From Deltaproteobacteria bacterium (GTDB lineage: Bacteria; Desulfobacterota_D; UBA1144; Nemesobacterales; CSP1-2), in assembly GCA_016187835.1 (NCBI GenBank), contig JACPIY010000058.1, forward strand, positions 1 to 61,597: a DNA stretch of 61,597 nt. Reading direction: 5' to 3'. The notes beneath the pieces were generated by a model that was not told the DNA's origin, did not search any database, and worked only from the letters and a program-made list of their open reading frames with translations. A program made the position numbers and the translations under genes. Below, piece by piece: positions 52,106-61,597 of the stretch (positions within the stretch are counted from its first letter, which is position 1; every line of letters starts with the position of its first letter).

Positions 52106-55100
52106 ATGAGTAGAAACATTTTTACTAACTTTAAAATCACAACTTTAATATATCTACTAACAATACCTATATCGAGCAATCTATTCGCATTAACTATATA
52201 CGATGGCGGCTATGATGAAACAGGATTCCAACCGAACAGAGTTTATTTAAATTATTCACCCCATGAGTTCATAAATCCCTATTCCGGAAATTTAACACTC
52301 TCTCATACGGATGTAACATTGCCGGGAAACGGAGGTCTGGATTTAACAATTCAGAGAAACTACAACAGCAAAGTTTTATATTTACCTCCCCCACTCGCAG
52401 CCTGGGTACCCACTGAAGGTGCAATGGGAATTGGTTGGGATTTACACTTCGGAAGAATTGCACCCTTTGGCGAACCCTTTCTACCTGCTGCAGGATTGAC
52501 AATGTCCGATGGCTCTGTATATCTCATTTACAACAATAATCACCAAAATATTAATTCTCATGTGAATGCCGGTTACATAGCCGAGAATTTTGCAACCTTA
52601 AATTTTGATGAATCTAACGAGGTATGGACTATGTCTCTTATTGATGGAACTGTCTATACCTTTGATCAACAAATTAGAAATTCTACCGGCTACGCGGAAG
52701 AATATTTTGCAAGTTCCATAAAAGACAAAAATGGAAATGAGATAAAGATTGGATACTATGATTGTTGCAACTTCCAGGTAGATGTTGACGGGTTTAGAGG
52801 TACTCTAGGCACATGTCCAGGTGATAATTCAGTAGTTAGAAAAGCATCTCACATTAAGCAAATAACAGATAGCGTCGGCAGAGTTATAAAGTTCAATTGG
52901 CTTAATAATTTATGTAGATCGAATAACCAATCGAATGTAATTAATTCAATAGATGTAAACGGGAAAATTTACAATTACATATATAACCCAGTTCAAATTA
53001 CCTCAGGCGATGGTCAGGTTGAAGATATAGCTTATGCTTTAATTGAGGTAAAACCCCCTGATGGTCCTAGCTGGGCATACAATTACGAGTCTGATGGTGT
53101 TCGTCCTGATGGAGAGATTAAGTCCGTTAGATACCCTTCCGGCGGTGTAGTGGAATATGCTTTTGATACTTTTACTCCGGATCCTCAGCAACACGTTGAT
53201 TGGTTTTCCAATACAATACCTCTCAAAACAAGGGCAATAACATCTCGAAAGGCTTCCGGTCCCAATATGACACCTGGGACGTGGACATATTCTTACGGGC
53301 TCTTAGAAAATAAAAACAGTACTACTGTAACCGAACCCTGCGGTAACAAAGTCGTATATAAGTTTCATGGAGTCCTTGAAAGTTCTTACATCGGCGATTG
53401 GGCAATTATGCTACTAGATGAGAAGAAGGTTTTCGATAGCGATAATAACCTCATCCAATTTGAGAAGAATACATGGAACCCATATCAGATGTCGGCAAAT
53501 GCCAACAGAGTAGAGCAAGGATTCTTCTTCCCTCTCTTAGCTTCAAGAACTATTTCAAGAGAAGGCAATGATTATGTTACTAATTTTACATACAACGCTT
53601 TTTATGCGGCGCCGACTAAAATTGAAGAACTGGGAGAATTAACAAGAACAACGGATATATCGTACTTCGAAAACATTTCAAGTGGAAACTATATAGTCGG
53701 GAAACCCCTTGTTTCAACCCTAACAGATGGTGTCGAGACAAAAACAATTACAAACTCCTATGACGCTAAAGGAAATCTCATTTCAGAGGATAAATACGGT
53801 GTAACCACTGAATTCTCTTATCTTCTAGATGGGAATTTAGCGTGGGAGAAGAACGCAAGGGGTTTCTACACCCATTTTGATCAATATAGCTTTGGAACAG
53901 CCGGTCGAATTAGATATGGTTCTTCAAATGCTTCAGGATCAGACCCAATTTACTCTGAGACAAGAACGATTAACTGGGAAGGAACCATCGGAAGCTTAAC
54001 AAATGGAAGGGGGTATCAAACTTCTTTTAGCTACGATGGTATAAATAGATTAACTGGAGTAACTCCACCTCCAAGCGGTGAAGCAGTAACCTTAATTACC
54101 TATGATGATATAGGAGGTCGGAGCTATAAAATCAAAAAAGGTATTTCTGAAGTTCAATACAATTTTGATGGTTTGGGAAGGCAAATTGGCACCCAATCAA
54201 ATGTTGGCGTGTTTACTGAAAAAAGATACGACCAATGCGGCCGCAAGATATATGAATCGCTCCCATTCTCTTTCGACGGCTCAACTCCAAATACAGGTGA
54301 TAGTTTCACTTATGATGCTCTAGATAGAGTAACGAAAATTACCCATCCTGATAGCTCCTCTATAAACTATTCCTATTCAGGCAATAACGTGACGATTAGT
54401 AATGAAAGAAACATCAATACGACTTTTAATTTCAAGTCTTTTGGGGATCCGGAAGACAAAAGGCTTATCAGTATCAGAGATTCTCAAAATAATATAACCT
54501 CTTATGAATATAATTTTCTTGGAAACATTGTTCGTGTTGATTCACCAGTAGGTGGGGATCGAGTCTTCACCTATAATTCCAAAAATTTCTTGGTTTCAGA
54601 AACCAATCCGGAAAACGGGACAACAGCTTACACTCATGATCCAATAGGTAATGTCACTTCAAAAACCGATTCCAAAAGTCAAACAACTCAATATCAATAT
54701 GATGGTTTAAACCGTTTAATATTGGTTGATTACCAATCAAATGAGGACGATGTTACTTATCAATATGACAATGCAAACAATAGAACTTTGATGCAAAGTA
54801 GTTCAGGAAGTTACTGGTATTCATATGAGTATGACCAATCAAACAGGTTAACTAAACAGACCGTAAATCTAGGCAGCACGACCTATATAGTTGATTTTGT
54901 TTATGATGAAAGAAATAACCTTATTCGAACTGTTTACCCTTCCGGCGAAGTGGTTAATTACAACTATGATCCCGCAAACAGGTTGTTGGACATATACGAT
55001 CCTTCAAATATACTGTTTATTGGTAATATCCTTTATCATGCTTCAGGATCCCCCAATCATTATATAAATGCCAATTATGTCAGCTCAGACTTCACTTTTG

Positions 55101-58100
55101 ATAATCGTCACCGTTTAAAGACTGTTAAGATTTCAAGACCATTTCCTGAGTTAAAAGTGACCAAAGATGGTTTAGGCAAAGGTACTGTAAAAAGCGATCC
55201 TCTTGGAATTGATTGCGGTAACGATTGTTCGCAGATTTATCCTGCAGATGGCATAACGGTAACATTGACTGTAGAGCCCGATCAAGATTCAAATTTTGTC
55301 AACTGGAGTGGAGACCCTGATTGCTCGGATGGTGTAGTGCTTATGGATGCGAACAAGACCTGTATCGCAACCTTCGCATTGAAATCTAATCAGTTCGCAC
55401 TCACAGTGAATAAAGCAGGCACCGGGACAGGAACTGTGACAAGCAGTCCAGCGGGAATAGATTGCGGAAGCGACTGTACTGAGAATTATAATGCCAATAC
55501 TCAGGTGACTTTAACACCAACTCCCGATGCAAGCTCAAACTTCACAGGCTGGAGTGGAGATGCCGATTGCTCTGATGCTGTGGTTATCATGGATGCAAGT
55601 AAGACCTGCACCGCTACTTTTGAACCAATACAACAATTTACCCTTACAGTGAACAAAGTTGGTACCGGAACAGGAACCGTGACATGTAGTCCCACAGGAA
55701 TAAATTGTGGAAGCGATTGTACAGAAAATTATGTTGCAAATACCCCCGTAACACTAACTGCGATACCTGCTGCTGGATCTAAATTTATAGCTTGGACTGG
55801 AGATGCAGACTGTACAGATGGCACAGTCACAATGGATGCAAACAAGATCTGTACTGCGCAATTCTCACCACTGCTTACGCTTACAATTGAAAAGAATGGT
55901 ACAGGAACTGGAACTGTTGTAAGTGTTAACTATGAAGGAATAAATTGTGGAAGTGATTGCTCGGAAGGCTATGACGAAAATTCTCTTATAGATATAAATG
56001 CAATTCCTGATCCTGATTCAAACTTTGCAGGCTGGAGTGGAAACCCAGATTGTTCGGATAATCTTGTTACTATGGATATAAGTAAAACCTGTATTGCCAC
56101 ATTCAATCTCCTACCTTCTAACCAACATACATTATCTGTAAACAAACAGGGTGATGGTTTTGGAACAGTTACTAGTACTCCAGCCGGTATTAATTGCGGT
56201 AGCGATTGTACCGAGGCTTATAATGATAATACACAGGTAACGCTAACACCAGTTCCTGTTCCGGGCGGTGGTTCAATCTTTGGAGAATGGAGTGGAGATG
56301 CAGATTGTTCTGACGGTGTAGTTACAATGGAGGTAAATAAAACTTGTACCGCCACTTTTACACAATCTGCACAGCGGTTCCATCTTTCAATTGATATCAA
56401 GGGTTTTGGAGAAGTACAAGGATTGTCCGGGTTCCCTTTTCAAAATGAAATTAGAATAGATTGTACAGGATTAGGTGATCTTACTCCTTTTCAGTTTAAT
56501 AACGATTGTGAAGAAGATTATGCAGTTAATACCGAGGTAGAATTTAAAATTTTTACATTATCGGAATGCCCCCCAGGTCCTGGCGAATTTTGTACCGACC
56601 CTGAGATCGACTATAATTCGACTTTCTTAAGTTGGGAAGGCGACCCTGATTGCTTAGATGGTGAAGTTACAATGGATGCAGATAAGACCTGCACCGCTAT
56701 CTTCACACCATTTAAGCTGGATGTATTTATAACTGGGGGAGGAACGGTAACTATAAGTCCTCAGGGAAATACCTGTACTATCTTTCCTGCTTGCTCTGAC
56801 TATTATCAACCAAATACACAGGTAACTCTAACGCCAGTTCCCAATGCTGGATCAGCCTTTTCGGGCTGGAGCGAGGATTCAGATTGCTCAGATGGTATAG
56901 TCACGATGGATACGGACAAGAAATGTAGAGCTACTTTCACTGGGTCCTCGCAGCAATTTACTCTCACAGTTAATAAATCCAGTACTGGAACTGGCACAGT
57001 AACGAGCAATCCTAGTGGAATAAATTGTGGTGCTGATTGCACACAGGATTACGATGTTAACACACAGGTAACACTAACCGCGGTCCCTGATGCCGGATCA
57101 ATTTTTGATGGATGGAGTGGCGATTCGGATTGCTCGGATGGCGTAGTTAGCATAGATGCAAATAAGTCTTGCACCGCCACTTTTACGCAATCATCAAACC
57201 AGCTTGTACTCACGGTGACCAAATCCGGCACTGGGACAGGTACCGTAACCAGCAGTCCTGTGGGAATAAATTGTGGTAGTGATTGCACGGAGAACTATGC
57301 TATAAACACGGTAGTATCTTTGACCATTACACCCGACCCTGGATCGAGATTTGTAGGTTGGAGTGGCGATCCAGGGTGCAACGATCAATTGACACTAAAT
57401 ACGAATAAGAATTGCATAGCAACTTTTGAACCGGATCTATTTACTCTAACTGTAAATAAGAGCGGAGTTGGGACCGGAACCGTAACCAGCAGTCCTGTCG
57501 GTATAGACTGCGGAACTGATTGTTCGGAGAATTATCCACCTAACACACAGGTAACTCTCACTGCGGTACCCGATTCGGATTTCGTATTTGCCGGATGGAC
57601 TGGAGACGATGAGGATTGCTCAGATGGAATTGTTACTATCGATTTTTCAAAAAACTGCACAGCCAGATTTGGATTACCATCGGCACACTTTGCGTATGTT
57701 ACAAATGAAGGGGATAACAGCGTATCAGTTATAGATACTTCATCAAATATCGTAGTTGATACTATTAATGTTGGAGATTCACCAGTAGGTATCGCAATTA
57801 GCCCTGATGATGCGTTTATCTATGTAGCTAACCAATTTGGCGATAGCGTATCAGTGGTTGATACATCAACAAACGGTGTAATAGCCACGGTTAGTGTAGG
57901 ATTTGGGCCCAGACACTTGGCTGTCAGTCCAGATGGGACCCGGGTTTATGTAGTGAACGAGTTTGAAAACAGCCTATCAGTGATAGATACCTCAACTAAC
58001 TCCGTGGTAAACACAATAACTGTAGGCGACACACCTCAGGAGGTGGCAGTTAGCCCCGATGGGATGCGCGTTTATGTAACAAACTATGTTGATGGCAGCG

Positions 58101-60736
58101 TATCGGTGATAGATACGTCAACAAATACTGTTATCGATACAGTGTTTGTCGGGATCTTACCTAAAGGTATAGTAATTAGCCCTGATGGCAGCCGTATTTA
58201 TGTAGCCAACTCCCGGGATGACGTCAGTTTTCCTGACGGCAATAGCGTATCAGTTATAGAGACCTTAACAAATTCTGTAGAAAATAATATTAGCGTAGGA
58301 ACCGGTCCCTGGAGTTTATCATTTAACCCGGATGGGACACGCCTGTATGTTGCCCATCTTTACGATGATGTTATTTCGGTCATAAATACAGCAACAAACA
58401 GTGTAATTAATACCTTATCTGTTGGATTGACCAGCTCAGACATAGCAATAAGCTCTGATGGAGACAAGCTCTATTTAGTCCATGATTTTGATAATCTTGT
58501 ATCTATCTTAGATATATCAACGGGATCTGTGGTGGATACGGTAAATGTTGGAGACTTTCCCCTGGAGATCGTAATATCGGGCTTTGAGAATGTCCCACCA
58601 GAGCAGTTTGCACTCACGGTGATCAAAACCGGTAATGGAACTGTCACAAGCAGCCCGACTGGGATAGATTGCGGAGATGATTGTACTGAAAATTACAACG
58701 TGGACACGCAAGTAACTCTGACAGCGACTCCTGATGCAGGTGCTAGCTTTAGTGGATGGAGCGGAGATGAGGACTGTTCCGATGGGATAGTTACTATGGA
58801 TGCAAATAAGACCTGCACTGCCACTTTTACCCAGCAGTTTACACTTACAGTAACCAAAACCGGTAACGGAACAGGCACTGTAACGAGCAGTCCTACTGGA
58901 ATAAATTGTGGTAGCGATTGCACTCAAGATTATGATTCAAATACAGAGGTAACCCTAACTGCTACGCCAAGTTTTGGCTCCGGCTTTACCGGCTGGAGTG
59001 GAGACCCTGACTGTTCTGATGGAATTGTCACTATGGATGCAAATAAGACCTGCACCGCTACTTTCGGTACAGCTAGACTCATAGTGAATAAAACCGGTAC
59101 AGGAACTGGTACTGTCACGAGCAATCCTGCGGGAATAAATTGCGGAAGTGATTGTACGCAAAATTATGGTTCGAATACGGAGATAACTCTAACTGCTGTG
59201 CCAAGCACTGATTCTAACTTCAATGGCTGGAGTGGATATCCAGATTGTTCGGATGGAATCGTTACGATGAATGTAGATAAGACCTGTACCGCTACTTTTA
59301 ATAAACCTAAACTCACAGTGACTAAAACCGGTACAGGGACTGGTACTGTGACCAGTAGCCCATCGGGAATAAGCTGTGGTAATGATTGTACACAAAATTA
59401 TAATTTGAATACTCAGGTGACGCTGACTGCAACGCCTAGCTCTAATAACGTCTTTGGGGGATGGAGCGGAGGCCCCGATTGCTCAGATGGTGTTGTTAGA
59501 ATGGACTCGGATAAAACTTGTACTGCAACCTTTAATGTACTCACACTTACAGTGACTAAAACTGGTACAGGATCAGGAACGGTAAAAAGTAGTCCTACCG
59601 GAATAAGCTGTGGCACTGATTGTACACAAAATTATAATTTGAACACACAGGTAGCGTTAACCGCCACACCAAGTACTGGTTCTGTATTTGGAGGATGGAG
59701 CGGAGATCCGGACTGCTCAGATGGAGTTGTTATAATGAATGCGGCTAAGACCTGTACCGCTACTTTTACACAATCCTCAGGGAAGTCTACACTCACAGTA
59801 ACCAAAGCGGGTACAGGGACAGGAACAGTTACAAGCAACCCTTCCGGTATAAACTGTGGAAGTGATTGTAGTGAGAATTACAACACGAACACACAAGTAA
59901 CTCTGACAGCAACGTCAAGCGGGGATTCTGTCTTTGCAGGCTGGAGTAGTAATTCTGATTGTACAGATGGTATTGTTACAATAAATGCCAATAAGACCTG
60001 TACCGCTACTTTTAATAAACCCAAGCTCACGGTGACCAAAAAAGGTACAGGTTCCGGAACCGTAACTAGCAGTCCTGCCGGAATAAATTGCGGAAGCGAT
60101 TGTAACGAGAACTATAGCATGGGTACGCAAGTGACGCTAACGGCAACACCAAGTCCAGGTTCATCCTTTGCCAGCTGGAGCGGAAATTCAGATTGTTCAG
60201 ATGGAATTGTCACTATGGATCTAGATAAAGCTTGTACCGCTACCTTTAATAAGCCTAAACTCATGGTGACTAAAACTGGCACGGGAACAGGGACGGTAAC
60301 TAGTAGTCCTACCGGAATAAACTGCGGAAGTGATTGTAACCAAAATTATAATTTAAACACGCAGGTAACACTAACTGCTACACCAGGTACTAATTCAAAC
60401 TTTACGGGGTGGAGTGGAAATTCAGACTGCTCAGATAGTATTGTTACTATGAATGTGGATAAGACATGCACTGCTACTTTTAATCAATCTTCTGCCAGTA
60501 TAAATAATTATAAAAACGCTATAAAAGCTAAAGCTGAAGATTTATCGAATAAATCAGCTAATGAGAAATCAGATTCCTTAGAAAACCGTAAAGATAGCTC
60601 CTTATATTCTAAAGTATCTTCATATGTGGAGTCTTTAAGACTCAGTGTTTTATCAATCCTTTTTGCAAGTAACGTATTTGGCCAAACAGTCCCCCCAACA
60701 ACATTTATTGACTTGGGAATTGGGGTCACCCATTAG
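52106..60736 (+). CDS. Giant secreted RHS - four-Cys repeat - YVTN propeller protein
   Basis: A 2876-residue protein. Residues 1-29 are a signal peptide (LIYLLTIPISSNLFA). Residues about 40-1010 are RHS/YD-repeat sequence (HEFINPYSGNLTLSHTD, YQYDGLNRLILVDYQS, YDPANRLLDIYD). The usual RHS core end and variable toxin are missing; the YD part switches directly after FDNRHRLKTVKIS into ten 77-residue repeats (about 1014-1855). A seven-bladed YVTN propeller follows (about 1860-2158; YVTNEGDNSVSVIDTSS). Eight more repeats (about 2168-2795) and a tail with VESLRLSVLSILFA end it. Each typical repeat has four Cys: INCGSDC, DCSDG and KTCTATF. Adhesin-like surface structure is the likely role. Confidence 0.85.
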   Translation: MSRNIFTNFKITTLIYLLTIPISSNLFALTIYDGGYDETGFQPNRVYLNYSPHEFINPYSGNLTLSHTDVTLPGNGGLDLTIQRNYNSKVLYLPPPLAAWVPTEGAMGIGWDLHFGRIAPFGEPFLPAAGLTMSDGSVYLIYNNNHQNINSHVNAGYIAENFATLNFDESNEVWTMSLIDGTVYTFDQQIRNSTGYAEEYFASSIKDKNGNEIKIGYYDCCNFQVDVDGFRGTLGTCPGDNSVVRKASHIKQITDSVGRVIKFNWLNNLCRSNNQSNVINSIDVNGKIYNYIYNPVQITSGDGQVEDIAYALIEVKPPDGPSWAYNYESDGVRPDGEIKSVRYPSGGVVEYAFDTFTPDPQQHVDWFSNTIPLKTRAITSRKASGPNMTPGTWTYSYGLLENKNSTTVTEPCGNKVVYKFHGVLESSYIGDWAIMLLDEKKVFDSDNNLIQFEKNTWNPYQMSANANRVEQGFFFPLLASRTISREGNDYVTNFTYNAFYAAPTKIEELGELTRTTDISYFENISSGNYIVGKPLVSTLTDGVETKTITNSYDAKGNLISEDKYGVTTEFSYLLDGNLAWEKNARGFYTHFDQYSFGTAGRIRYGSSNASGSDPIYSETRTINWEGTIGSLTNGRGYQTSFSYDGINRLTGVTPPPSGEAVTLITYDDIGGRSYKIKKGISEVQYNFDGLGRQIGTQSNVGVFTEKRYDQCGRKIYESLPFSFDGSTPNTGDSFTYDALDRVTKITHPDSSSINYSYSGNNVTISNERNINTTFNFKSFGDPEDKRLISIRDSQNNITSYEYNFLGNIVRVDSPVGGDRVFTYNSKNFLVSETNPENGTTAYTHDPIGNVTSKTDSKSQTTQYQYDGLNRLILVDYQSNEDDVTYQYDNANNRTLMQSSSGSYWYSYEYDQSNRLTKQTVNLGSTTYIVDFVYDERNNLIRTVYPSGEVVNYNYDPANRLLDIYDPSNILFIGNILYHASGSPNHYINANYVSSDFTFDNRHRLKTVKISRPFPELKVTKDGLGKGTVKSDPLGIDCGNDCSQIYPADGITVTLTVEPDQDSNFVNWSGDPDCSDGVVLMDANKTCIATFALKSNQFALTVNKAGTGTGTVTSSPAGIDCGSDCTENYNANTQVTLTPTPDASSNFTGWSGDADCSDAVVIMDASKTCTATFEPIQQFTLTVNKVGTGTGTVTCSPTGINCGSDCTENYVANTPVTLTAIPAAGSKFIAWTGDADCTDGTVTMDANKICTAQFSPLLTLTIEKNGTGTGTVVSVNYEGINCGSDCSEGYDENSLIDINAIPDPDSNFAGWSGNPDCSDNLVTMDISKTCIATFNLLPSNQHTLSVNKQGDGFGTVTSTPAGINCGSDCTEAYNDNTQVTLTPVPVPGGGSIFGEWSGDADCSDGVVTMEVNKTCTATFTQSAQRFHLSIDIKGFGEVQGLSGFPFQNEIRIDCTGLGDLTPFQFNNDCEEDYAVNTEVEFKIFTLSECPPGPGEFCTDPEIDYNSTFLSWEGDPDCLDGEVTMDADKTCTAIFTPFKLDVFITGGGTVTISPQGNTCTIFPACSDYYQPNTQVTLTPVPNAGSAFSGWSEDSDCSDGIVTMDTDKKCRATFTGSSQQFTLTVNKSSTGTGTVTSNPSGINCGADCTQDYDVNTQVTLTAVPDAGSIFDGWSGDSDCSDGVVSIDANKSCTATFTQSSNQLVLTVTKSGTGTGTVTSSPVGINCGSDCTENYAINTVVSLTITPDPGSRFVGWSGDPGCNDQLTLNTNKNCIATFEPDLFTLTVNKSGVGTGTVTSSPVGIDCGTDCSENYPPNTQVTLTAVPDSDFVFAGWTGDDEDCSDGIVTIDFSKNCTARFGLPSAHFAYVTNEGDNSVSVIDTSSNIVVDTINVGDSPVGIAISPDDAFIYVANQFGDSVSVVDTSTNGVIATVSVGFGPRHLAVSPDGTRVYVVNEFENSLSVIDTSTNSVVNTITVGDTPQEVAVSPDGMRVYVTNYVDGSVSVIDTSTNTVIDTVFVGILPKGIVISPDGSRIYVANSRDDVSFPDGNSVSVIETLTNSVENNISVGTGPWSLSFNPDGTRLYVAHLYDDVISVINTATNSVINTLSVGLTSSDIAISSDGDKLYLVHDFDNLVSILDISTGSVVDTVNVGDFPLEIVISGFENVPPEQFALTVIKTGNGTVTSSPTGIDCGDDCTENYNVDTQVTLTATPDAGASFSGWSGDEDCSDGIVTMDANKTCTATFTQQFTLTVTKTGNGTGTVTSSPTGINCGSDCTQDYDSNTEVTLTATPSFGSGFTGWSGDPDCSDGIVTMDANKTCTATFGTARLIVNKTGTGTGTVTSNPAGINCGSDCTQNYGSNTEITLTAVPSTDSNFNGWSGYPDCSDGIVTMNVDKTCTATFNKPKLTVTKTGTGTGTVTSSPSGISCGNDCTQNYNLNTQVTLTATPSSNNVFGGWSGGPDCSDGVVRMDSDKTCTATFNVLTLTVTKTGTGSGTVKSSPTGISCGTDCTQNYNLNTQVALTATPSTGSVFGGWSGDPDCSDGVVIMNAAKTCTATFTQSSGKSTLTVTKAGTGTGTVTSNPSGINCGSDCSENYNTNTQVTLTATSSGDSVFAGWSSNSDCTDGIVTINANKTCTATFNKPKLTVTKKGTGSGTVTSSPAGINCGSDCNENYSMGTQVTLTATPSPGSSFASWSGNSDCSDGIVTMDLDKACTATFNKPKLMVTKTGTGTGTVTSSPTGINCGSDCNQNYNLNTQVTLTATPGTNSNFTGWSGNSDCSDSIVTMNVDKTCTATFNQSSASINNYKNAIKAKAEDLSNKSANEKSDSLENRKDSSLYSKVSSYVESLRLSVLSILFASNVFGQTVPPTTFIDLGIGVTH
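55140..57680 (+). repeat. Four-Cys repeat array A (ten copies)
   Basis: Ten copies of a 77-85 residue InlB B-repeat-like unit (GTGTVTSSPxGINCGSDC...GWSGDxDCSDG...KTCTATF). Copies 6 and 7 are divergent: the sixth gains an extra stretch with PPGPGEFCTD and the seventh loses part. Coding repeat only. Confidence 0.85.
58605..60480 (+). repeat. Four-Cys repeat array B (eight copies)
   Basis: Eight further units, more alike than array A. Three junctions share the linker FNKPKL (between copies 3/4, 6/7 and 7/8 of this array), which suggests recent tandem duplication. Confidence 0.85.
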
Positions 60737-61149
60737 CCAGTCCCTGTCAAGAGGCAAAAATATTCCTTACATTTAATCTTGTTCATATCATCAGTTCCCT
60801 GCAGGCTTATCCAACACGCACCCGTTATTTTATTCATTCGGTACAGTATGAGCATAATAAGCTGATCCGCACCAGTCACCCATCGGGATCAATCCTGAAC
60901 AAATTTCAGTACCTGGCTTCACTAGAAGCCCCAAAAAATCTTCGGTTTCAAACCATGTCCACTTTGTTTTAACAGACCTATGGCTTACCATCATTCACTA
61001 TGGTTTCCAACCCCTTGTTGGCTCATGGCTTAGGCGTATCAGACAAAAAACCAGCATTATTTCTTGTGAATGAAACGGCTTCCAATCAGGCCTTGTGGTT
61101 TTTAACCAACCCCATTACTGGTTCACCGTTTCATTCATCTTCTAACCTC
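60737..61149 (-). mobile_element. 3' noncoding end of the right-hand IS110-type element
   Basis: No gene seen. The interval separates the giant gene's stop from the transposase stop. The CCAGTCCCTGTCAAGAGGC at 60737-60755 is the likely element end, on the complement reading GCCTCTTGACAGGGACTGG. IS110-group elements encode their bridge RNA in a noncoding end; for IS1111-like members it lies 3' of the transposase, so this interval is a candidate. Confidence 0.4.
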
Positions 61150-61597
61150 CTACACAAACACTTTGTTCTCATCAAAGGGCACCTGGTCTTTGATGATGTA
61201 ATAACAGGCCCTTGCCAGTTTATGAGCCAATGCCTTTGTCGCTACAACATTATTTCTCTTCGCCGCTTTCCTCTGATAAAACCTTCGAGCTTTCTCATTA
61301 TAACGCTTGGCAAAGTTGGCAGCTTCTATGAATGCCCATGACAAGTACTTATTCCCATTCTTCTCATTGTCCTCTCCTTTCTTCTTGTCGTTGCTCCTAT
61401 ATTGGCTATCCACACAGCGGCAGTATGATGCGTAGTGTCCTACTTCTTTAAATCGTCCTATATCCCCTGTCTCCAGCATGATCGTGAGAGCCAGGGTGGG
61501 TCCGATACCGCTAACGGTTAGCAAATGCCGAAAGGCAGGTTGCAATTGAACCCGCTCCTTGACCACTCGCTCCAGTTGGGTAATCTCGGTTTCCAGA
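61150..61597 (-). CDS. IS110-family transposase, C-terminal part (cut by window end)
   Basis: About 148 residues reading in from the right edge. LLTVSGIGPTLALTIMLETG and FKEVGHYASYCRCVDSQYRS are the helix-hairpin-helix and Transposase_20 (PF02371) core of IS110 enzymes, with the Ser-type region of this family, then KNGNKYLSWAFIEAANFA. The frame stays open to the edge, so the N-terminal DEDD domain lies outside. It differs from the left-edge fragment. Confidence 0.88.
   Translation of the reverse strand, partial: LETEITQLERVVKERVQLQPAFRHLLTVSGIGPTLALTIMLETGDIGRFKEVGHYASYCRCVDSQYRSNDKKKGEDNEKNGNKYLSWAFIEAANFAKRYNEKARRFYQRKAAKRNNVVATKALAHKLARACYYIIKDQVPFDENKVFV

What the first reader, a model, noticed from the sequence alone, without database searches (positions are those of the whole stretch)
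52106..60736. Giant RHS-like protein with its C-terminus replaced by four-Cys repeats and a propeller
An RHS/YD-repeat protein normally ends in a conserved core followed by a variable toxin domain. Here the YD repeats stop abruptly after FDNRHRLKTVKIS and an array of InlB-type repeats begins at once. It is interrupted by a seven-bladed YVTN propeller and then continues. This architecture is not one I know as a standard class. It could be a non-toxic adhesin built on an RHS secretion shell, or a fused product of domain shuffling. There is no obvious immunity gene or toxin domain next to it.
Basis: partly seen in the sequence, partly recalled or inferred. Interest (0 to 1): 0.62.

Follow-up and report, generated by a model that had tools for sequence, protein, structure and literature searches.

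The report
IS-cut shell half of Rhs toxin
This giant gene from a Dadabacterium is the cage-and-adhesion half of an exported Rhs-type toxin whose killing end is missing because a jumping gene landed in it, and its relatives in many other bacteria make the cage and the toxin as two separately exported proteins, an arrangement we did not find described.

Summary
In detail: 52106-60736 encodes 2876 aa made of a signal peptide, DUF6531/YD-repeat half, 10 four-Cys InlB repeats, a 7-blade YVTN propeller, 8 more InlB repeats, and no RHS core or toxin. The interpretation changes. (1) The array belongs to the family: four other Dadabacteria have it at the same junction. (2) The one complete relative (G003) carries on after the array into a signal-peptide-like segment, more YD repeats, a full RHS core, an Ntox10 toxin and an adjacent Imm27 immunity gene. 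(3) The window copy stops early because an IS110/IS1111-type element begins at 60722 and supplies the last four codons and the stop; the same terminus lies at eight other sites in two other genomes. (4) In other phyla the relatives are mostly split: a Sec-signal shell gene without core, often with PKD, FN3 or propeller domains added, beside one to five small genes each with its own signal peptide, RHS core, variable C-terminus and often an immunity gene (16 loci downstream, 4 upstream, 1 single-chain). The window genome has a stand-alone gene of that type on another contig. Best reading: an IS-truncated shell/adhesion subunit of a Sec-exported, often two-chain Rhs toxin. Assembly in trans is inferred, not shown.

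The parts
52106..52189 (+). N-terminal Sec signal-peptide-like segment (aa 1-28)
   Evidence: passes the crude hydrophobicity/small-x-small test; no SignalP available
52190..55138 (+). RHS shell part (aa 29-1011): DUF6531 at aa 55-115, RHS/YD repeats
   Evidence: Pfam; AF2 model of aa 28-1165 with pLDDT 84.7, all top PDB hits are Rhs/teneurin/TcB-TcC shells, best 7q97 RhsA E 3e-37; 55-63% identical orthologues
55148..57670 (+). first array of 10 four-Cys InlB-type repeats (aa 1015-1855)
   Evidence: PF18998; local HMM; same junction in L037-L040
57683..58600 (+). seven-bladed YVTN/lactonase-type beta-propeller (about aa 1860-2165), no Cys
   Evidence: TIGR02276 x7 and PF10282; also in L037 and L040; G003 has FG-GAP_2 at this place
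58607..60481 (+). second array of 8 four-Cys InlB-type repeats (aa 2168-2792)
   Evidence: PF18998 and local HMM; 1 repeat at this place in L037, 4 in L040, 2 in L038
60482..60616 (+). charged linker (aa 2793-2837)
   Evidence: sequence; aligns loosely with the linker of G003 and of the C19 gene
60617..60685 (+). signal-peptide-like hydrophobic segment in mid-protein (aa 2838-2860)
   Evidence: conserved in G003 and at the start of the stand-alone C19 gene; test; cut short by the contig end in G001
60686..60721 (+). first 12 aa of the resumed RHS part (TVPPTTFIDLGI), then cut
   Evidence: aligns with TVPPTTFIDLEY of the C19 gene; 33 of 35 bases identical there
60722..61597 (-). IS110/IS1111-type insertion sequence, cut by the contig end; its terminus supplies codons GVTH and the stop TAG (60722-60736)
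   Evidence: terminus GGGGTCACCCATTAGCC at eight other sites with different flanks in G004 and G005
61150..61597 (-). C-terminal part of the transposase (Transposase_20)
   Evidence: PF02371 E 4.4e-17

Best explanation
The ORF is the shell-plus-display half of a Sec-exported Rhs polymorphic toxin of a Dadabacterium, truncated by an insertion sequence. A signal peptide sends it out of the cytoplasm. The first ~1010 aa fold as the wall of an Rhs/YD shell. At a turn between two YD strands a long array of disulfide-type InlB repeats with a propeller is attached, most likely a stalk or adhesion module facing outward. In the intact gene of the relative G003, a signal-peptide-like segment and the rest of the shell follow: the RHS core (a presumed aspartyl autoprotease plug) and a C-terminal toxin, with the immunity gene next door. 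In the window copy an IS110/IS1111-type element cuts the frame 12 codons after that segment. A stand-alone gene in the same genome (contig C19), with its own signal peptide, YD repeats, RHS core and variable C-terminus, is of the type that relatives in other phyla use as the separate second chain. It could plug this shell in trans or take over the toxin role. Shown: domain order, conservation, IS boundary, toxin/immunity in the complete relative, split gene pairs. Inferred: export route, outward placement of the array, autoproteolysis, assembly in trans, killing of neighbouring bacteria.
For: Same N-part and same array junction in four other Dadabacteria. G003 continues into RHS core, Ntox10 (E 8.6e-53) and an Imm27 gene (E 2.6e-22) overlapping by 4 bases. 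IS terminus mapped by eight other insertion sites. Shell fold predicted with good confidence and matched to Rhs shells in the PDB. In 20 of 22 evaluable relatives elsewhere, core and C-terminus lie in a separate gene with its own signal peptide; these second genes carry TIGR03696 above cut-off. Tandem copies are 85-94% alike in signal peptide and core but 18-29% in the C-terminus, at the shuffled level of 22%. Toxin/immunity pair Ntox24 (weak) with Imm53. The window genome holds such a stand-alone gene on C19.
Against: Only one Dadabacteria gene (G003) is complete; G001, G005 and G006 run off their contigs. The C19 gene is far from the window gene and shares only about 134 bases with it at 72% identity, so partnership is a guess. 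No interaction, export or toxicity was tested. C19's own C-terminus and the small ORF after it match no known toxin or immunity family. What lies beyond the IS is not in the assembly.
Confidence: 0.8

Rival explanations
1. The window protein works as it stands as a non-toxic surface adhesin: RHS half-shell as anchor or export scaffold, InlB array and propeller as binding parts.
For: Adhesion-type modules make up two thirds of the protein. The frame is intact up to the IS. The Nitrospirae relative L063 ends its shell gene with FN3 and propeller-like repeats. The number and kind of modules vary between genomes as in adhesins.
Against: Complete relative G003 ends in core, Ntox10 and Imm27. The stop codon is supplied by the IS, not by the gene. 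Even L063 has a signal-peptide core gene upstream.
Confidence: 0.12
2. The window copy is simply a dying pseudogene: the IS killed the toxin gene recently, and the C19 gene is an unrelated orphan cassette of the kind known from enterobacterial rhs loci.
For: IS truncation; no other RHS core in the assembly except C19. Orphan Rhs-CT modules without full-length partner are known (PMC3967940).
Against: No stops or frameshifts in 2872 codons, though a recent hit would look the same. C19 has its own ATG and signal-peptide-like start, unlike most enterobacterial orphans, and split pairs are the rule among relatives.
Confidence: 0.35
3. The architecture or its truncated end is an assembly chimera.
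For: The contig ends 861 bases on, inside a repeat element. G001's contig ends at almost the same spot, which suggests a repeated sequence there.
Against: Array junction and order recur in four independent genomes. The IS begins at its true terminus, as at eight other sites, which a random misjoin would not produce.
Confidence: 0.05

Closest known systems
Rhs polymorphic toxins (T6SS Rhs effectors such as RhsA 7q97, WapA)
   Same: DUF6531/YD-repeat shell fold; the complete relative has RHS core, variable toxin and immunity gene
   Different: Sec-type signal peptide, no PAAR or VgrG part; a ~1250 aa InlB/propeller array in the shell; in relatives core and toxin form a separate exported protein
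Tc toxins, TcB-TcC (TcdB2-TccC3, YenB/RHS2)
   Same: Rhs shell made from two polypeptides, cargo chains exchangeable (PMC11067744); a propeller associated with the shell
   Different: No SpvB hit in the window protein; second chain in relatives is only core plus toxin and has its own signal peptide
Bacterial teneurin-like proteins (TLP, 9ifo) and teneurins
   Same: YD shell with propeller and extra domains, toxin in shell, Sec signals in some TLPs (PMC13018210); 9ifo among the fold hits
   Different: Propeller here is YVTN type, inside the InlB array and not before the shell; no single-chain core in most relatives
Mosquito SGS1 (8fjp)
   Same: Receptor-like domains, a propeller among them, inserted into the sequence of an Rhs/YD shell (PMC9935623)
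   Different: Other domains and other insertion points; eukaryotic
Orphan Rhs-CT cassettes of Enterobacteriaceae
   Same: Displaced core/C-terminus modules with immunity genes next to a main rhs gene (PMC3967940)
   Different: Those usually lack translation start and export signals; here 27 of 31 core genes have a signal-peptide-like start

Membership tests
RHS/YD-repeat protein | YD repeats and DUF6531, RHS shell fold | tested here: met
RHS polymorphic toxin (window protein itself) | RHS-associated core (TIGR03696) | tested here: not met
   no hit in the window protein, no core motif; present in G003 by local core HMM and in C19 and split relatives by TIGR03696
RHS polymorphic toxin (window protein itself) | C-terminal toxin domain and adjacent immunity gene | tested here: not met
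   none in the window; present in the G003 relative: Ntox10 and Imm27
T6SS Rhs effector | PAAR/prePAAR or VgrG part and no Sec signal | tested here: not met
   no PAAR or VgrG domain in the window protein; signal-peptide-like N-terminus
Tc toxin B component | SpvB domain and partner TcA | tested here: not met
   no SpvB hit; TcA was not searched for genome-wide
Split Rhs (two-chain organisation of this family) | shell gene without core next to a separate signal-peptide core-toxin gene | tested here: inconclusive
   20 of 22 evaluable relatives; in Dadabacteria fused in G003, stand-alone but unlinked in the window genome
Split Rhs (two-chain organisation of this family) | shell and core proteins assemble into one capsule | not testable with these tools
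   no complex prediction or experiment available
InlB B-repeat array | tandem ~76-aa repeats matching PF18998, four Cys each | tested here: met
YVTN beta-propeller | seven ~42-aa YVTN repeats | tested here: met
   TIGR02276, 7 stretches
IS110/IS1111 element | Transposase_20 domain and a recurrent terminus at different sites | tested here: met
   the N-terminal DEDD half lies beyond the contig end

The most novel reading that the evidence does not exclude
A widespread but undescribed class of Rhs toxin in which the shell and the core-toxin are two proteins exported separately by Sec, with tandem sets of exchangeable core-toxin/immunity cassettes, and in which the shell subunit carries a lineage-specific adhesion or receptor array. 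They would meet outside the cytoplasm to form a loaded capsule. The Dadabacteria gene would be a fused version that keeps the second signal peptide inside, possibly cut by signal peptidase into two chains again.
Probability: 0.5. Interest if true: 0.76.

Novelty: new variant of a known kind. Interest (0 to 1): 0.62.

Why it matters
Known Rhs toxins are read as one chain that must fold around its own toxin before secretion, with Tc toxins as the main two-chain exception. If relatives of this gene make shell and core-toxin separately and export both by Sec, then loading of an Rhs capsule outside the cytoplasm, exchange of toxins without recombining the large gene, and targeting by added receptor domains become directly testable in culturable bacteria such as Acidovorax radicis, Undibacterium jejuense and Pseudomonas jinjuensis. 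It also places toxin/immunity pairs and a modular adhesion array in Dadabacteria, for which no Rhs paper was found in the open library.

Tried and rejected
Search for the missing 3' half of the window gene in the same genome: only the C19 paralogue and the window's own stub were found. The IS110 N-terminal half on C79 is a different element, not the continuation. Idea that C19 is the displaced half of the window gene: rejected, because the overlapping 134 bases are only 72% identical. Idea that the array is unique to the window or a chimera: rejected. Idea that a conserved internal start codon precedes the signal-peptide-like segment: a GTG exists in the window (the V of SYV), but G003 has Ile at that place, so it is not conserved. 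Eight literature searches, including Dadabacteria with Rhs and split, bipartite or tandem Rhs with signal peptides, gave no description; the library holds open-licence papers only.

Full report
Observation. The frame 52106-60736 is real and uninterrupted, 2876 aa. It holds a signal-peptide-like start, DUF6531, YD repeats to aa ~1011, 18 InlB-type repeats in two blocks (10 and 8) and a seven-bladed YVTN propeller between them. All 18 repeats have at least four Cys, and the propeller has none. There is no RHS-associated core and no toxin domain. The window is a whole contig (C50) of a 2.86 Mb, 107-contig genome. Its nearest named relatives are Candidatus Dadabacteria.

Relatives in the family. 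Searching the N-part in 60 related genomes finds full-length orthologues in four other members of the same family (G001, G003, G005, G006), 55-63% identical to the window over the N-part. All four pass from YD repeats into InlB repeats at the same residue. G001 has the order 10 InlB, propeller, 1 InlB, RTX repeats; G005 has 8 InlB, propeller, 4 InlB, RTX; G003 has 7 InlB, FG-GAP_2, 2 InlB, RTX, and G006 shares its first 7 InlB repeats before its contig ends. The architecture is therefore conserved and modular, not a chimera. Between the two closest orthologues (G003 and G006), shell and array both show purifying selection, dN/dS about 0.27 and 0.24.

The true end of the gene. Only G003 is complete. 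After its RTX part it goes through a linker and a signal-peptide-like segment (SYIESLRLILVSVLFASNAYAQ) into YD repeats, the RHS core, and a C-terminus that matches Ntox10 (E 8.6e-53). The next gene, overlapping by four bases, matches Imm27 (E 2.6e-22). Zhang et al. 2012 list Imm27 as the main immunity protein of Ntox10 (PMC3482391). The window protein has the same linker and segment (SYVESLRLSVLSILFASNVFGQ), then TVPPTTFIDLGI, and stops. The sequence from 60722 on (GGGGTCACCCATTAGCC...) is the terminus of an element found at eight other sites with different flanks in G004 and G005. It carries a Transposase_20 domain on the minus strand. The last four codons and the stop are thus encoded by the element. 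The rest of the element and whatever lies beyond are not in the assembly; the only other RHS core in the genome is on contig C19.

The C19 gene. G000:C19:26095-27690 encodes 531 aa with its own ATG, a signal-peptide-like start (SLILLLLLFATNAFAQ), TVPPTTFIDLEY, YD repeats, TIGR03696 core (E 6.3e-22) and a C-terminus of unknown kind. A 69-aa ORF and a 58-bp direct repeat follow it, and a copy of that repeat also precedes it. The short overlap with the window gene is 72% identical over 134 bases and 33 of 35 bases at its end, as expected for paralogues with some gene conversion.

Relatives outside Dadabacteria. A scan of 84,980 genomes gave 34 loci, in Nitrospirae, Chromatiales, Halieaceae, Burkholderiales, Hahella, Pseudomonas and others, with the InlB array only in Dadabacteria. 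In all relatives that are long enough, the region matching G003's tail follows the N-part within about 0-60 residues, so the Dadabacteria array sits in what is elsewhere a continuous shell. The predicted secondary structure puts the junction between two strands. But elsewhere the shell gene stops before the core. PKD, FN3, TSP3, PQQ-propeller, Golvesin or Ig domains are often added at its end. The core lies in a separate gene of about 300 aa that starts with a signal-peptide-like segment. Such genes are directly downstream in 16 loci (L067, L070, L072, L075, L076, L079, L080, L081, L083, L084, L085, L087, L088, L089, L090, L091) and upstream in 4 Nitrospirae loci (L063, L065, L066, L074). One Nitrospira gene (L064) is single-chain. 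Several of these loci are from sequenced isolates (L070, L084-L088), so the split is not a metagenome artefact. A crude test finds a signal-peptide-like start in 27 of 31 core genes and in 41 of 272 control positions. In L079 five such genes stand in tandem: signal peptide and core are 85-94% identical, while the C-termini are 18-29% identical, the level of shuffled sequence (22%). Small genes follow them; the first pair is Ntox24 (E 1e-4) with Imm53 (E 3.5e-37), a pairing listed in PMC3482391.

Mechanism. The N-part is predicted as an RHS shell (pLDDT 84.7), with RhsA, other T6SS Rhs proteins, teneurin-like protein, TcdB2-TccC3 and SGS1 as hits. The segment before the resumed RHS part in Dadabacteria corresponds to the signal peptide of the separate core genes elsewhere, so the Dadabacteria gene looks like a fusion of shell gene and core gene; its split point lies about 200 aa further upstream than in the other lineages. 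The array lies at the end of the shell half, where other lineages carry other binding-type domains. Known parallels are receptor domains inserted in the Rhs shell of SGS1 (PMC9935623), TcB-TcC with exchangeable cargo (PMC11067744, abstract) and orphan Rhs-CT recombination (PMC3967940). That shell and core chains meet outside the cytoplasm, that the array binds target cells, and that the toxin kills neighbouring bacteria are inferences.

Limits. One complete Dadabacteria gene; no SignalP; no complex prediction; no experiments; literature limited to open-licence papers. The parts on the two sides of the IS were not joined or rebuilt.

Noticed in passing
G000:C19:25939-28052 (L058 5940-8053): Stand-alone signal-peptide/YD/RHS-core/variable-C-terminus gene with a 69-aa ORF behind it, flanked by a 58-bp direct repeat (93% identical); further partial copies of the repeat on C78 and C22.
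   Followed up: partly
L079:13769-19852: Betaproteobacterial locus with five tandem signal-peptide plus RHS-core genes, near-identical cores and unrelated C-termini, small genes between them (Imm53, DUF6959).
   Followed up: partly
L081:13269-16349: A 1024-aa variant of the core gene with Ig-like repeats between its signal peptide and the RHS core.
   Followed up: no
window 60722-61150: About 430 bases of non-coding sequence between the IS terminus and the transposase stop, the place where IS1111-type elements may encode their guide RNA; many short remnants of this terminus (29-150 bases) in G004 and G005.
   Followed up: no
L060:2-2332 (G001:C7): RHS core-toxin fragment at a contig end whose pre-toxin region resembles that of the C19 gene, with a different C-terminus and a 112-aa ORF after it; probably the 3' part of, or a cassette for, the G001 orthologue.
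   Followed up: partly
L101:1-740 (G000:C79): A second, different IS110-type transposase N-terminal half at the start of a contig.
   Followed up: no
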